From Burkholderiaceae bacterium (GTDB lineage: Bacteria; Pseudomonadota; Gammaproteobacteria; Burkholderiales; Burkholderiaceae_C): a stretch of 36,591 nucleotides of DNA. The translations under genes and the position numbers were made by a program. This document shows positions 3,501 to 6,844 of the stretch, in pieces. A model generated the notes under the pieces. The model was given only the letters and a program-made list of their open reading frames with translations. It was not told the origin of the DNA and searched no databases. The stretch is from the NCBI GenBank assembly GCA_030654805.1, contig JAURWR010000131.1, forward strand, positions 1 through 36,591, given 5' to 3'. The stretch's first letter is position 1. The number at the start of each line of letters is the position of its first letter.

Positions 3501-3584
3501 CGCGGCTGCGCCTTGCAAAGTGAGGATCGTACCGGCCCGGTTTCATCGGCATTTCTGCACGGCGTTTCGGACTGCCGAGCAAAT

Positions 3585-3603
3585 TGATACATCGTGATAC
3601 ATC
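3585..3603. promoter_or_regulatory. Tandem 9-bp direct repeat between divergent genes
   Basis: TGATACATC occurs twice, separated by one G (3585-3593 and 3595-3603), giving a repeat period of 10 bp, one helical turn. It lies 85 bp upstream of the esterase-BVMO start and 116 bp upstream of the response-regulator start. Direct repeats on the same helix face are typical of AraC/XylS-type or similar activator sites. That it controls the monooxygenase is inference; no regulator gene is adjacent. Confidence 0.45.
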
Positions 3604-3718
3604 CTTTAACTGCTTCACCGGTACGCTCGATGGGGTCGGATTTTTCGGAGACGCTCTTGCAGGCCTGGTGCGTGCAAACCGGTGTGGTGTCAGTGACGGA
3701 TGGGGGGTCCGTGCGACG

Positions 3719-4915
3719 ATGAATGACTATCTTTTGTGGGGCGCTGGCGCGGTGCTGGTTCTGCTCGTGGCGTTGCTGCTGGTGCGGCGCCGCAGTGCGC
3801 CGGCGCTGCGGCGGGATCAGTCCAAGAATCGGCAACAGCCTTCTGACGCTGTGACACGCGCCGCCGATGCGGTGCCATCGCGATCGCGCGGAGCGTCTCA
3901 GTTCGATACCGCCAACGCTGTCCACGAAATGGAGCTGGCACCCAGGGCCGGCGTCGATGTGCCGCTGGAGGCCGACCGCGAAGCCGCGCAAGCTGCCGAG
4001 CTGGCAGCTCGTGCCGAGGCAGACCGTGAAGCCGCCGAATGGGAAGCCCGCCTCGTTGCGCAGTTGCTCGCCGATCAGGAGCGCGAGCGGGCTGCGATCG
4101 AAGCCGAGCGCCTGGCCGCCGAAGCGGCCGCGAATGAACCGCCTCCACCTGACGAGAGGGCCGTTCGCGAGCAAGCCGACCGCGAAGCCGCCGAATGGGA
4201 GGCGAAGCTGGTCGCACAGCGACTCGCCGACGAAGAAATCCGACGTGTCGAAGCCGAGCGGCTGGCTGCCGAGACCGCTGCGGCCGAGCAGTTGCAGCGT
4301 GACATCGCGGCCCATGTGGCGCTGGAGCGGGCCGCCCAGGATCGTTTTGAGCGCGCTGCTGATGAGCAACTGGCCCGGCTTGAAGCGCAGCGCATGGCCG
4401 AAGCAGCGCAAGCTGAAGCCGAGGCGGCCCGCATTGCTGCGGCGGCTTTGGCTGCAGCGTCGGCGGAAGCGGCTTTCACCACGTCGTTGGAGCCCGCTGC
4501 GGCCGTGCTGGCTGTCGCTGCCGGCCCGCGCACGCCCGAACAATGCCTGGTGATGATCGCCGACGACTCCAAGGTGGTGCGGGTCAAGACCAGCCGACTG
4601 CTCGCGAAGCACCTGTACCGCGTGTCGCTGGCCGAGGACGGACTCGACGCAGCGCGCCAGATCGAGATTGACCTGCCCCATGTGCTGATCACCGACGTCG
4701 AGATGCCCGGCATGGACGGGTTCGAGTTGACGCGTCAGGTGCGCAGCAATCCGCGCACCGCGCACATCCCGATCGTGATGATCACGGCCGACGATGAAAA
4801 GCACCGTGCCGACGCGCTCGAAGCCGGTGTCAGCGTGCTGCTCAGCAAGCCGTATCCCGAAGACCAGTTGCTGTCGTACCTGCAGTCGACGCTGAGCGGC
4901 GCGGCAGCGCACTGA
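3719..4915 (+). CDS. Membrane-anchored response regulator with Ala/Glu-rich coiled linker
   Basis: A 398-residue protein in three parts. Residues 4-22 form a single membrane helix followed by RRR, which suggests that the rest is cytoplasmic. Residues about 80-250 are rich in Ala, Glu, Arg and Gln with coiled-coil character and include two near-identical blocks: ADREAAEWEARLVAQLLAD (101-119) and ADREAAEWEAKLVAQRLAD (153-171), each followed by an EAERLAAE motif. Residues 275-395 are a receiver domain with acidic pair Asp282/Asp283, phospho-acceptor Asp326 in LITDVEMPGMDGF, Thr356 and Lys377 in SKPY. There is no output domain, as in PilG/CheY-type regulators, so it probably signals by protein contact. 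The frame is open further upstream, but the ATG at 3719 begins directly before the membrane helix. Confidence 0.85.
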   Translation: MNDYLLWGAGAVLVLLVALLLVRRRSAPALRRDQSKNRQQPSDAVTRAADAVPSRSRGASQFDTANAVHEMELAPRAGVDVPLEADREAAQAAELAARAEADREAAEWEARLVAQLLADQERERAAIEAERLAAEAAANEPPPPDERAVREQADREAAEWEAKLVAQRLADEEIRRVEAERLAAETAAAEQLQRDIAAHVALERAAQDRFERAADEQLARLEAQRMAEAAQAEAEAARIAAAALAAASAEAAFTTSLEPAAAVLAVAAGPRTPEQCLVMIADDSKVVRVKTSRLLAKHLYRVSLAEDGLDAARQIEIDLPHVLITDVEMPGMDGFELTRQVRSNPRTAHIPIVMITADDEKHRADALEAGVSVLLSKPYPEDQLLSYLQSTLSGAAAH

Positions 4916-4988
4916 CATTCCCCGGCGCTGCTGCCCGCGCGGCGCCTCGGCAAGGGGGCATGATCGCGAGCAACCGGACGGAGATTCC

Positions 4989-6569
4989 ATGGACGACAAG
5001 CTCATCGTCAGCAACCGCCGCGCGCTGAAGTCCAAGTACGGCGCGGGCGGCTTTGCGAAAGTGCTGGGCGCGGTGCGCGCGCTGATCGCAGCCGACAAGC
5101 AGCGTGGCATCCGCAGCCGGCTGGTGTTCATCGACGATGCGGCGGCGATGAAGAAACTGAAGGCCCCGCCGGTCACCGTTGCGTCGAGTCCGAGGCAGGC
5201 GAAGGCGGCGATCGATGCGGTGTTCCGCGCCACCGACCCCGAGTACCTGATGATCCTCGGCTCGCCCGACGTGGTGCCGCAGCAGGACCTGATCAACCCG
5301 CTGTACTCGCCGCCCGACGACGACCCCGATGCCTGCGCCTGGGGCGATCTGCCCTACGCCTGCGAGGCCGGCTACTCGCGCGATGTGTCGGCCTTCAAGG
5401 GTCCGACGCGGGTCGTCGGTCGACTGCCCGACCTGGCCGGCGCCAGGGATCCGTCCTACCTGCTCGGTGTGCTCGACCGTGCAGCCCGTTACCAGCCGCG
5501 AGACGTGGCCGACTACGGCGCGTACTTCGGGCTGTCGACCCGCACGTGGCGCGAATCGACCGCGCTCAGCCTGTTCAACATCTTCGGCAATTCGAAGGAG
5601 CTGACGCTGTCGCCACCGGCGAGTGCCAAAAATTCGGACGCACGCCTGGCGCCGCTGATGCATTTCATCAACTGCCACGGCGGGCAGGCCGACCCGCAGT
5701 TCTACGGTGAGGATGCGAAGCACCACTTTCCGGTGTCGCTCTCCAGCACCGCGATTGCCGGCCGGATCCACCCCGGCACCGTGGCGGCGGCCGAATGCTG
5801 CTATGGCGGCGAGATGTACGACTCGGTGACGCTGGGCCTGCCGATGCCGATCGGCCAGCATTACCTGGCGCAGGGCGCGTTCGCGTTCGTCGGCAGCTCG
5901 ACCATCGCCTACGGCCCGGCCGACAGCAACGGCGCCGCCGACCTGCTGACGCAGTACTTCCTGCTCGCGGTGCTGGAAGGCGCGTCGACCGGCCGCGCGA
6001 TGCTGATGGCACGGCAGCGCTTCGTGCAGCAGACGGCCGAACTCGACCCGATGGACCTGAAGACGCTGGCGCAGTTCAGCCTGCTCGGGGATCCGGCGGT
6101 GCACCCGGCGCGCGTGCCGAATGCGACGGTGGTGCCACGCGGTGTCGCGTCGTCCGATGCGCTGCGCCTGCAGCGCCGAGAGCGCCGCGCCAAGCTGCGC
6201 GCGGCCGGCGATTTTCTCGAAGCGACAAAGCCGGCGACGTCGCTGCCGCAGGTCGACGCGCCGTGCTCGGCGCAGGTGCGTCAGGCGCTGGCCCGCATCG
6301 CGCAGAGTGCCGGCCTGGGGGCGAATCAGGCCTTCGTTTCGTATGTGGTGCAGGGCGGCGCTGTCGGTGCATCGGCGGCCCCGGTTGCCAGCAGCCGCAC
6401 CTTGCGTGGCAAAGCGCCGGCGGCGACCATGCCGACCCGGTATCACGTCGCGATCGCGACACCGTCTCGTCCGACCCGGACCGCAGCGGCACCGCATTCC
6501 GCGGTGGCGGCGGTCGCACGCGAGGTCGACGGGCGCATCGTCGCCTACCGCGTCTACGTGCAGCGGTAG
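4989..6569 (+). CDS. Cytosolic gingipain-like (C25, clan CD) cysteine peptidase
   Basis: A 526-residue protein with the layout of a C25/caspase-fold peptidase. After a Rossmann-like N-terminal half (LMILGSPDVVP at 87-97, then GRLPDL) comes the His block LMHFINCHGG with His230, then the Cys block TVAAAECCYGG with Cys270/Cys271. The C-terminal end of the domain shows GAFAFVGSSTIAYG and FSLLGDPAVHP, as in gingipain-type domains. About 150 further residues follow: an Ala/Pro-rich linker and a final beta-rich segment ending DGRIVAYRVYVQR. There is no signal peptide, prodomain or sorting domain, unlike secreted gingipains, so it should act in the cytoplasm. GGAG lies 9 nt before the ATG. The next gene starts 2 nt after the stop. 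Substrate and trigger are unknown. Confidence 0.78.
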   Translation: MDDKLIVSNRRALKSKYGAGGFAKVLGAVRALIAADKQRGIRSRLVFIDDAAAMKKLKAPPVTVASSPRQAKAAIDAVFRATDPEYLMILGSPDVVPQQDLINPLYSPPDDDPDACAWGDLPYACEAGYSRDVSAFKGPTRVVGRLPDLAGARDPSYLLGVLDRAARYQPRDVADYGAYFGLSTRTWRESTALSLFNIFGNSKELTLSPPASAKNSDARLAPLMHFINCHGGQADPQFYGEDAKHHFPVSLSSTAIAGRIHPGTVAAAECCYGGEMYDSVTLGLPMPIGQHYLAQGAFAFVGSSTIAYGPADSNGAADLLTQYFLLAVLEGASTGRAMLMARQRFVQQTAELDPMDLKTLAQFSLLGDPAVHPARVPNATVVPRGVASSDALRLQRRERRAKLRAAGDFLEATKPATSLPQVDAPCSAQVRQALARIAQSAGLGANQAFVSYVVQGGAVGASAAPVASSRTLRGKAPAATMPTRYHVAIATPSRPTRTAAAPHSAVAAVAREVDGRIVAYRVYVQR

Positions 6570-6571
6570 AG

Positions 6572-6844
6572 ATGGCGAGCACCGCCGACCCCGGGCCGCA
6601 GCGCGTCGATGCGCTGGCGGGCACCGTGGTGGCCGGGCCGGTCGGCGCCGGCAGCAAGAGCGAACGCGCGGCGGTGTGGATCGAGACGGCTCAGGGTCGC
6701 TATCTGCTGCGCCGGAAGGTGGGCCCGAGCCACGGCGATGCGACGCTCGATCGCTATGTCGGACAGCGCGTGGTCTGCTGCGGCTTCATCGTGGGCCATT
6801 CGCTGCTGGCCGAGCACATCGAAGTGGTCGGCGCGAGCGGCTGA
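6572..6844 (+). CDS. Small beta-rich partner protein of the C25-like peptidase
   Basis: A 90-residue protein that begins 2 nt after the stop codon of the peptidase gene, so the two are almost certainly co-translated. It has alternating hydrophobic strands: a first strand GTVVAGP, a motif GSKSERAAVWIET, then GRYLLRRK, LDRYVGQRVVCCGFIVG and a last strand LLAEHIEVVG. The pattern resembles a small OB-like barrel, but no family was named with certainty. There is no signal peptide or membrane segment. It could be an inhibitor, adaptor or ligand sensor of the peptidase; this rests on position alone. Cys-Cys in VVCCGF is notable beside a cysteine peptidase. Confidence 0.7.
   Translation: MASTADPGPQRVDALAGTVVAGPVGAGSKSERAAVWIETAQGRYLLRRKVGPSHGDATLDRYVGQRVVCCGFIVGHSLLAEHIEVVGASG

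What the first reader, a model, noticed from the sequence alone, without database searches (positions are those of the whole stretch)
4989..6844. Cytosolic gingipain-like peptidase paired with a 90-residue partner
The peptidase has the clan CD His (HGG, 230) and Cys (AECCYGG, 270/271) blocks and the LLGDPAVHP end of C25 domains. It lacks the signal peptide, prodomain and secretion tail of gingipains. A small beta-rich protein follows after 2 nt. Clan CD peptidases inside bacteria are often switched on by a partner or signal (caspase-like defence or regulated-proteolysis systems). Here the small protein is the natural candidate for inhibitor, sensor or substrate. I know of no characterised example of this two-gene unit.
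Basis: partly seen in the sequence, partly recalled or inferred. Interest (0 to 1): 0.8.

Follow-up and report, generated by a model that had tools for sequence, protein, structure and literature searches.

The report
Caspase-fold protease with conserved small partner
A protease related to gingipains, apparently made inside the cell, is nearly always encoded next to one small barrel-shaped protein in bacteria of several phyla, and the way the genes are lost suggests that the small protein restrains the protease.

Summary
Window 4989-6569 encodes a 526-aa C25-type cysteine peptidase and 6572-6844, after 2 nt, a 90-aa protein. The pair is a real, widespread unit: the small gene lies directly 3' in 53 of 55 peptidase loci examined and in all 38 peptidase carriers among 60 genomes of the genus Chitinophaga. 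The peptidase model (pLDDT 90) matches gingipain K best. The partner is predicted to be an OB fold whose L12 loop carries a G-[ST]-K-S-E motif (position 29 K in 49, R in 1 of 50). In five Chitinophaga genomes the peptidase is gone from the site while the partner remains; there the partner tends to evolve faster and the motif is lost in 4 of 5, against 38 of 38 intact in carriers. Best explanation: a dedicated OB-fold inhibitor whose basic loop blocks a peptidase probably specific for Lys/Arg. Pairing and dependence of the loop on the peptidase are shown; inhibition is inferred. My searches found no description of the pair. A link to contractile injection systems was tested and rejected. Substrate and release signal are unknown.

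The parts
4989..6569 (+). C25-type (gingipain-like, clan CD) cysteine peptidase, 526 aa, no evident signal peptide
5670..5684 (+). catalytic His block N228-C-H230-G-G
   Evidence: H230 invariant in A2, 45 of 45; NCHG present in 53 of 53
5793..5801 (+). catalytic Cys block E269-C270-C271; C271 the likely nucleophile by analogy with Kgp C476-C477
   Evidence: invariant in A2; Kgp numbering from passages of PMC6426963
6084..6095 (+). LGDP motif at the end of the C25 domain (L366-P369)
6234..6566 (+). C-terminal alpha/beta extension (residues 416-526), mostly confidently modelled (460-473 below pLDDT 50), ending in Arg here and in Arg/Lys in 49 of 53 loci
6572..6844 (+). cognate partner, 90 aa, predicted OB fold
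6650..6667 (+). G27-S-K29-S-E-R32 motif in the L12 loop of the partner's predicted OB fold
   Evidence: position 29 K in 49 and R in 1 of 50; loop between strands 10-24 and 32-39
4980..4983 (+). GGAG, Shine-Dalgarno-like, 5 nt before the peptidase start
   Evidence: read from sequence

Best explanation
A regulated intracellular protease module. The first gene makes a caspase-fold C25 peptidase; the second, closely spaced and often overlapping gene makes a dedicated OB-fold inhibitor. The inhibitor presents a G-S/T-K-S-E loop (OB loop L12) whose Lys enters the peptidase's S1 pocket as a pseudosubstrate, as a residue of the RgpB prodomain and an Arg of securin do in other clan CD peptidases. The peptidase is thus kept harmless in the cytosol until the inhibitor is removed, cleaved or titrated by an unknown signal. 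SHOWN: pair conservation across phyla, the two predicted folds, the invariant dyad, the K/R-only loop position, and loop decay when the peptidase is lost. INFERRED: that the two proteins bind, that binding inhibits, that the Lys occupies S1, that the peptidase prefers Lys/Arg, that release is regulated.
For: Partner directly 3' in 53 of 55 loci; with starts chosen by script, 22 of the 53 overlap the peptidase gene, 25 start 0-25 nt after it and 6 further. 38 of 38 Chitinophaga carriers, -11 to +62 nt between matched stretches (five of these genomes are also among the 55). In the relatives set 8 of 60 genomes carry the peptidase and all 8 have the partner directly 3', one cut by a contig end. 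Asymmetry: among 60 Chitinophaga, 0 carry the peptidase alone, 5 the partner alone. Three further loci have a damaged peptidase with the partner gene intact: L047 and L075 interrupted frames, G272 only residues 247-526. Motif intact in 38 of 38 carriers against 1 of 5 orphans (Fisher p 4e-5, orphans not independent). Partner/epimerase divergence to the nearest carrier 3.0-7.7 in 5 orphans, median 1.7 in 30 carriers, whose highest value, 4.2, overlaps. Loop position 29 is K in 49 and R in 1 of 50, the P1 residues of gingipains (PMC4357240 passage). Distance matrices correlate (r 0.64, 0 of 2000 permutations, n = 48). Peptidase model pLDDT 90.3, pTM 0.91; Foldseek best Kgp, then SAVED-CHAT, Craspase TPR-CHAT, separase. 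Partner pLDDT 83.5, pTM 0.69, OB-type order of strands and helix; Foldseek list led by OB-fold proteins.
Against: No complex was modelled and no coordinates were available, so docking of the loop in the active site is untested. The asymmetry rests on about 2-3 independent losses in one genus, and a 1.5-kb gene is a bigger deletion target than a 0.27-kb one. L052 has the peptidase and no partner found in its (MAG) genome; L079 has the partner 3.6 kb upstream, not adjacent. Motif decay fits any peptidase-dependent role (activator, substrate) too. The prodomain analogy is not clean: isolated RgpB and Kgp propeptides inhibited non-competitively (PMC3677877 passages). No acidic residue was assigned to S1. 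No partner Foldseek match reaches E 0.001 (best 0.056), although prob is 0.97-0.99 for several top hits. Sequence searches found no convincing PDB relative of either protein.
Confidence: 0.55

Rival explanations
1. The partner is an obligate activator, foldase or substrate-recruiting subunit: it binds the peptidase away from the active site and is needed for activity or stability.
For: Near-perfect pairing and motif decay without the peptidase fit any obligate binding partner. A trans helper for a prodomain-less enzyme is plausible (recalled, not tested).
Against: Loss of the peptidase with the partner kept (5 of 60) but never the reverse (0 of 60) in Chitinophaga is the order expected of an antidote, though only 2-3 events. 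A strictly basic residue in the loop is not needed for this role.
Confidence: 0.2
2. The partner is the dedicated substrate: the peptidase cuts after K29 in the L12 loop, and the cut OB protein is the signal (as gasdermin or Csx30 for other bacterial proteases; recalled).
For: A conserved Lys (Arg once) in a loop is a good P1 for a C25-type enzyme; model block 21-30, which holds the loop start, has lower pLDDT (74).
Against: No second domain that cleavage would release (90 aa, single predicted OB fold) and no clear membrane segment. Overlapping genes and one-to-one pairing suggest a stoichiometric complex rather than turnover.
Confidence: 0.12
3. Exported effector plus immunity protein: the peptidase is cargo of a contractile injection or other secretion system and the partner protects the producer.
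For: An eCIS_core protein lies 2.4 kb upstream in L054 and a tail-sheath gene 4 kb away in L072; 31 of 41 carrier genomes have eCIS_core, 0 of 14 control genomes.
Against: Base rate explains it: in Chitinophaga 56 of 60 genomes have eCIS_core, and 3 of the 4 without it are peptidase carriers. In the window's relatives none of the 8 carriers has it, against 5 of 52 non-carriers. The window genome has none. No evident signal peptide. Other genera were not base-rate matched.
Confidence: 0.07
4. The two genes are chance neighbours.
For: None found.
Confidence: 0.01

Closest known systems
Gingipains (MEROPS C25; RgpB, Kgp)
   Same: Pfam PF01364 over the cut-off; clan CD His/Cys blocks; two adjacent cysteines as in Kgp C476-C477; best fold match Kgp.
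   Different: No evident signal peptide, no ~200-aa N-terminal prodomain, no Ig or T9SS-tail domain matched in Pfam; a different C-terminal extension; a separate predicted OB-fold partner instead of a cis prodomain.
Staphopain-staphostatin, SpeB-Spi and Bacteroides C10-Bfi protease-inhibitor pairs
   Same: Cysteine protease gene juxtaposed to a small specific inhibitor gene; staphostatin is a beta-barrel that inserts a substrate-like segment (passages of PMC2873492 and PMC7863939).
   Different: Those proteases are of families C47 and C10 and are exported; staphostatin is lipocalin-like with an uncleavable Gly at P1, not an OB fold with Lys.
Separase-securin
   Same: Clan CD peptidase kept inactive by a dedicated inhibitor; in the securin complex an Arg fills S1 (PMC7863939 passage); separase is among the fold matches.
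   Different: Securin is unstructured and long; here the partner is a small folded domain; the peptidase is C25, not C50.
TIMP (OB-fold metalloprotease inhibitors; recalled, no call)
   Same: Precedent for an OB fold as protease inhibitor.
   Different: Targets zinc proteases; no sequence relation tested.
Craspase TPR-CHAT and SAVED-CHAT
   Same: Bacterial caspase-fold proteases controlled by a partner; fold matches from E 7e-5.
   Different: CHAT domains with large sensing partners (recalled); no such genes beside the window pair.

Membership tests
Peptidase family C25 (gingipain) | Matches the C25 profile above its curated cut-off | tested here: met
   (30.5 bits, cut-off 23); all 38 A4 members match at E <= 0.01
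Peptidase family C25 (gingipain) | Clan CD His and Cys blocks conserved | tested here: met
Peptidase family C25 (gingipain) | Caspase-like gingipain fold | tested here: met
   (predicted model); TM 0.46 query / 0.53 target over 591 columns with rmsd 20, so the overall superposition is loose
Peptidase family C25 (gingipain) | Secreted: signal peptide, N-terminal prodomain, Ig domain, T9SS tail | tested here: not met
   hydropathy scan only; peptidase fold begins at the N-terminus; no second Pfam domain. These define gingipains, not all of C25
Peptidase family C25 (gingipain) | Acidic S1 pocket for Arg/Lys | tested here: inconclusive
   sequence profile does not align to PDB gingipains; no coordinates to superpose
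Staphostatin (I57) | Gene directly beside a cysteine protease gene | tested here: met
Staphostatin (I57) | Lipocalin-like barrel, target C47, conserved Gly at P1 | tested here: not met
   predicted OB fold, C25 neighbour, Lys in the motif
Separase-securin | Unstructured inhibitor threading through the peptidase | tested here: not met
   partner is predicted as a folded domain
OB-fold proteins | beta1-beta2-beta3-alpha-beta4-beta5 barrel | tested here: met
   order of elements; Foldseek list (weak E-values; naming of hits as OB folds recalled)
Toxin-antitoxin-like pair | Toxic first protein never found without the second | tested here: inconclusive
   0 of 38 Chitinophaga carriers lack the partner; 1 of 55 loci lacks it in its whole MAG; toxicity not testable
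Known anti-phage defence systems | Match of the window proteins in PADLOC, or conserved defence neighbourhood | tested here: not met
   isolated defence-like neighbours only in L047, L074, L085

The most novel reading that the evidence does not exclude
A bacterial counterpart of separase-securin: a cytosolic caspase-fold executioner protease held by an OB-fold pseudosubstrate, whose OB face also senses a ligand (nucleic acid, nucleotide or peptide) through the same L12 loop, so that ligand binding frees the protease and starts a programmed proteolytic response.
Probability: 0.15. Interest if true: 0.9.

Novelty: new variant of a known kind. Interest (0 to 1): 0.72.

Why it matters
Clan CD proteases run cell death and chromosome separation in eukaryotes and some bacterial immune systems. 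A compact two-gene version, found by record title in six or seven bacterial phyla and kept at one chromosomal site through much of Chitinophaga, would give a simple model for how such a protease is held and released. It would also add an OB-fold class of cysteine-protease inhibitor with a one-residue test (K29), and give a function to a small gene that is annotated only as a hypothetical protein in the plasmid records where it is annotated at all.

Tried and rejected
(1) Link with extracellular contractile injection systems: looked strong (31 of 41 carriers) until base rates were taken in two groups; rejected. (2) A larger conserved operon: clustering of neighbours across 55 loci found no third gene common outside related groups (one search used a naive gene caller and is superseded). 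(3) Phage origin: no phage-record relative, none among candidates of one viral-contig scan; plasmid hits exist in 10 records, six of them Rhizobium. (4) Known name for the partner: only weak Pfam hits (DUF5818 in 10 of 50, best E 1e-4; EspG, Rrp40_N, DUF5666, DUF1980_C). (5) Nucleic-acid binding as main role of the partner: the family is not consistently basic (net charge median 0, range -8 to +13, n = 48); not excluded. (6) Mapping the S1 acid by sequence to PDB gingipains: no alignment obtained. (7) A read-through fusion of the two genes as a way to fold the complex was considered and not done, because no coordinates are returned. (8) Paper searches: (and 90 for staphostatins) listed nothing describing the pair, judged from listings.

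Rows dropped before counts: A2 (45 of 55) leaves out L015, L038, L039, L040, L047, L061, L062, L068, L075, L081 (close relatives, or interrupted frames in L047 and L075); A4 (38) further leaves out the 7 plasmid rows. A3 (50 of 53) leaves out L015, L040 (cut by contig end) and L080 (insertion); A5 (42) further leaves out L062 and the 7 plasmid rows. One search uses 48 pairs. The epimerase and partner trees use 35 of 43 Chitinophaga loci (8 had no readable epimerase in the fetched stretch). L149 (G377) is on a cut contig, so its peptidase was read only in part and misses the block check (37 of 38). Seven of ten plasmid records were opened. L052 and L079 count as misses.

Full report
OBSERVATION. 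The window holds, as stated, a 526-aa peptidase gene (4989-6569) and a 90-aa gene 2 nt downstream (6572-6844). The peptidase passes the Pfam C25 cut-off (30.5 bits against 23) and has no second match in its genome. The window's partner has no family above a cut-off in Pfam, NCBIfam or PADLOC.

HOW FAR THE PAIR GOES. Among 60 relatives, the window genome included, 8 carry the peptidase, 7 of them among the 15 of the same genus. The partner, searched independently, has its strong hits in the seven genus carriers and a weak one (E 0.034) just behind the eighth. Reading the DNA shows it directly 3' in all 8, one cut by a contig end. A scan of one genome per species gave 46 loci. By record title they come from Pseudomonadota, Nitrospira, Acidobacteria, Bacteroidota, Chlorobiaceae, Planctomycetota and Actinobacteria, many of them MAGs, plus one contig labelled Nitrososphaerales, which may be mis-binned. 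The plasmid collection gave 10 records, of which I opened seven. Of 55 loci examined (window, L015, 46 + 7), 53 have the partner in the same direction directly 3'. With starts chosen by script, 22 overlap the peptidase gene, 25 start 0-25 nt after it and 6 further. The two misses are L052, with no partner found in its MAG, and L079, whose partner lies 3.6 kb upstream. In a class-wide sample of 274 genomes the peptidase is in 2 and the partner in the same 2, plus one weak hit inside a longer frame. One of the two, G272, keeps only peptidase residues 247-526 although its contig continues, so it lacks the His block; its partner is intact.

STRUCTURES. The peptidase model has pLDDT 90.3 and pTM 0.91 on 38 sequences. 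The best Foldseek matches in the PDB are gingipain K (E 2.5e-12 and 7.3e-12), then SAVED-CHAT, Craspase TPR-CHAT, separase and, weakly, caspases. The partner model has pLDDT 83.5 and pTM 0.69: strands 10-24, 32-39, 42-48, helix 57-62, strands 66-74, 77-85, the order of an OB fold. The leading Foldseek matches are TiaS, mitochondrial SSB, PriB, a DNA polymerase delta subunit and RecO; none reaches E 0.001 (best 0.056), with prob 0.97-0.99 for most of these. That these share the OB fold is recalled knowledge. The conserved G-S-K-S-E-R motif lies in the loop between strands 1 and 2 (L12).

RESIDUES. H230, C270 and C271 are invariant in 45 of 45 aligned peptidases, and both blocks were found in 53 of 53. 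Kgp has C476 beside its nucleophile C477 (PMC6426963 passages), so C271 is the likely nucleophile here. In the partner, position 29 is K in 49 and R in 1 of 50; S30 is S in 49; E31 is E in 45; R47 is R in 47; D56 is D in 47. [quoted passage not shown] A K/R-only loop position is what such a pseudosubstrate would need. Against a simple analogy, isolated gingipain propeptides inhibit non-competitively (PMC3677877 passages).

A NATURAL EXPERIMENT. I took 60 genomes of the genus of L055 (Chitinophaga chungangae). The peptidase is present in 38 and the partner in 43. All 38 carriers have the partner adjacent; five of them are also among the 55 loci. The other five (G402, G418, G379, G415, G393) have the partner alone. 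There a ~420-aa gene ends 30-150 nt before it, leaving no room for a peptidase, and an epimerase-like gene follows, in L107 after one small ORF. The same two neighbours flank the pair in carriers: see clusters 19 and 26, and an epimerase found at 30 of 38 carriers. The gene name is recalled. Only two weak matches to the peptidase (E 0.009 and 0.087) were found, both in L108 and some 3-4 kb from its partner. On the epimerase tree the five fall in three groups, on the partner tree in two, so 2-3 independent losses. The [ST]KSE motif is intact in 38 of 38 carriers and in 1 of 5 orphans. Distance to the nearest carrier, partner over epimerase, is 3.0-7.7 in orphans and 1.7 (median, n = 30) in carriers. 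The highest carrier, 4.2, exceeds the lowest orphan (Mann-Whitney p 2.6e-4, orphans not independent). Thus the loop is kept because of the peptidase, and the peptidase was not seen without its partner in this genus. The first point holds for any interaction model; the second favours an inhibitor, with the caveats of few events and unequal gene length. Three further damaged peptidases with the partner gene intact point the same way: G272, and L047 and L075, whose frames are interrupted. Sequencing error is possible in the last two.

MECHANISM. I therefore propose a cytosolic C25 peptidase with a dedicated OB-fold inhibitor acting through the K29 loop. Binding, inhibition, S1 occupancy and the release signal are inferred. 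The two sets of evolutionary distances correlate (r 0.64, 0 of 2000 permutations, n = 48), which is expected for a co-inherited pair and does not by itself prove contact.

WHAT IT IS NOT. Neighbourhoods differ from group to group (Pfam on 20 chosen neighbours). eCIS_core proteins occur in 31 of 41 carrier genomes, but in 56 of 60 Chitinophaga, and 3 of the 4 without it carry the peptidase. Among the window's relatives they occur in 0 of 8 carriers against 5 of 52 non-carriers. Phage records gave no match, nor did the candidates of one viral-contig scan.

KNOWN RELATIVES. Juxtaposed protease-inhibitor genes are known for SpeB-Spi, staphopain-staphostatin and Bacteroides C10-Bfi (PMC2873492 passages), and staphostatin and securin occupy the active-site cleft (PMC7863939 passages). 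None of these is a C25 enzyme with an OB-fold inhibitor. Four phrase variants for family C25 returned 15 papers; from titles and abstract starts none concerns a cytosolic C25 enzyme with a partner. Further searches listed nothing on the pair. Most subscription papers and all bioRxiv preprints are outside the library.

Noticed in passing
window 6564-6566 and peptidase C-termini of other loci: The peptidase ends in Arg or Lys in 49 of 53 loci and 38 of 38 Chitinophaga carriers; three of the four exceptions have ...AR plus two residues. A C-terminal P1-like residue could cap its own or a neighbour's active site.
   Followed up: partly
window 3584-4915: Upstream same-strand gene with an Ala/Glu-rich coil and what looks like a response-regulator receiver domain (not scanned); a related gene (cluster 9) directly precedes the peptidase in the other genus loci L037-L042.
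   Followed up: no
L085:10772-10903: A second, short partner-like stretch (E 1.8e-6) 1.25 kb behind the intact pair on a Bradyrhizobium plasmid.
   Followed up: no
L083, L084, L085, L088: On alphaproteobacterial plasmids the pair sits beside ferritin-like and radical SAM genes with companions, one of them weakly LodA-like, and in L085 a 'tryptophan 7-halogenase'.
   Followed up: partly
L045, L049, L063, L086, L089: One neighbour family (cluster 22) recurs near the pair in different groups: GDSL-lipase-like in L045, L049, L063, annotated 'caspase family protein' in L086 and L089.
   Followed up: partly
L047, L075 and L036 (G272): The peptidase is in two frames (L047, L075) or lacks its N-terminal half (G272) while the partner gene is intact: early peptidase decay, or sequencing error in the first two.
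   Followed up: partly
Chitinophaga genomes: eCIS_core domain proteins are present in 56 of 60 genomes of the genus sampled, often in several copies.
   Followed up: no
L047:9835-14430: Two TIR-domain proteins, one with NACHT, lie beside the pair in one Nitrospira MAG.
   Followed up: no
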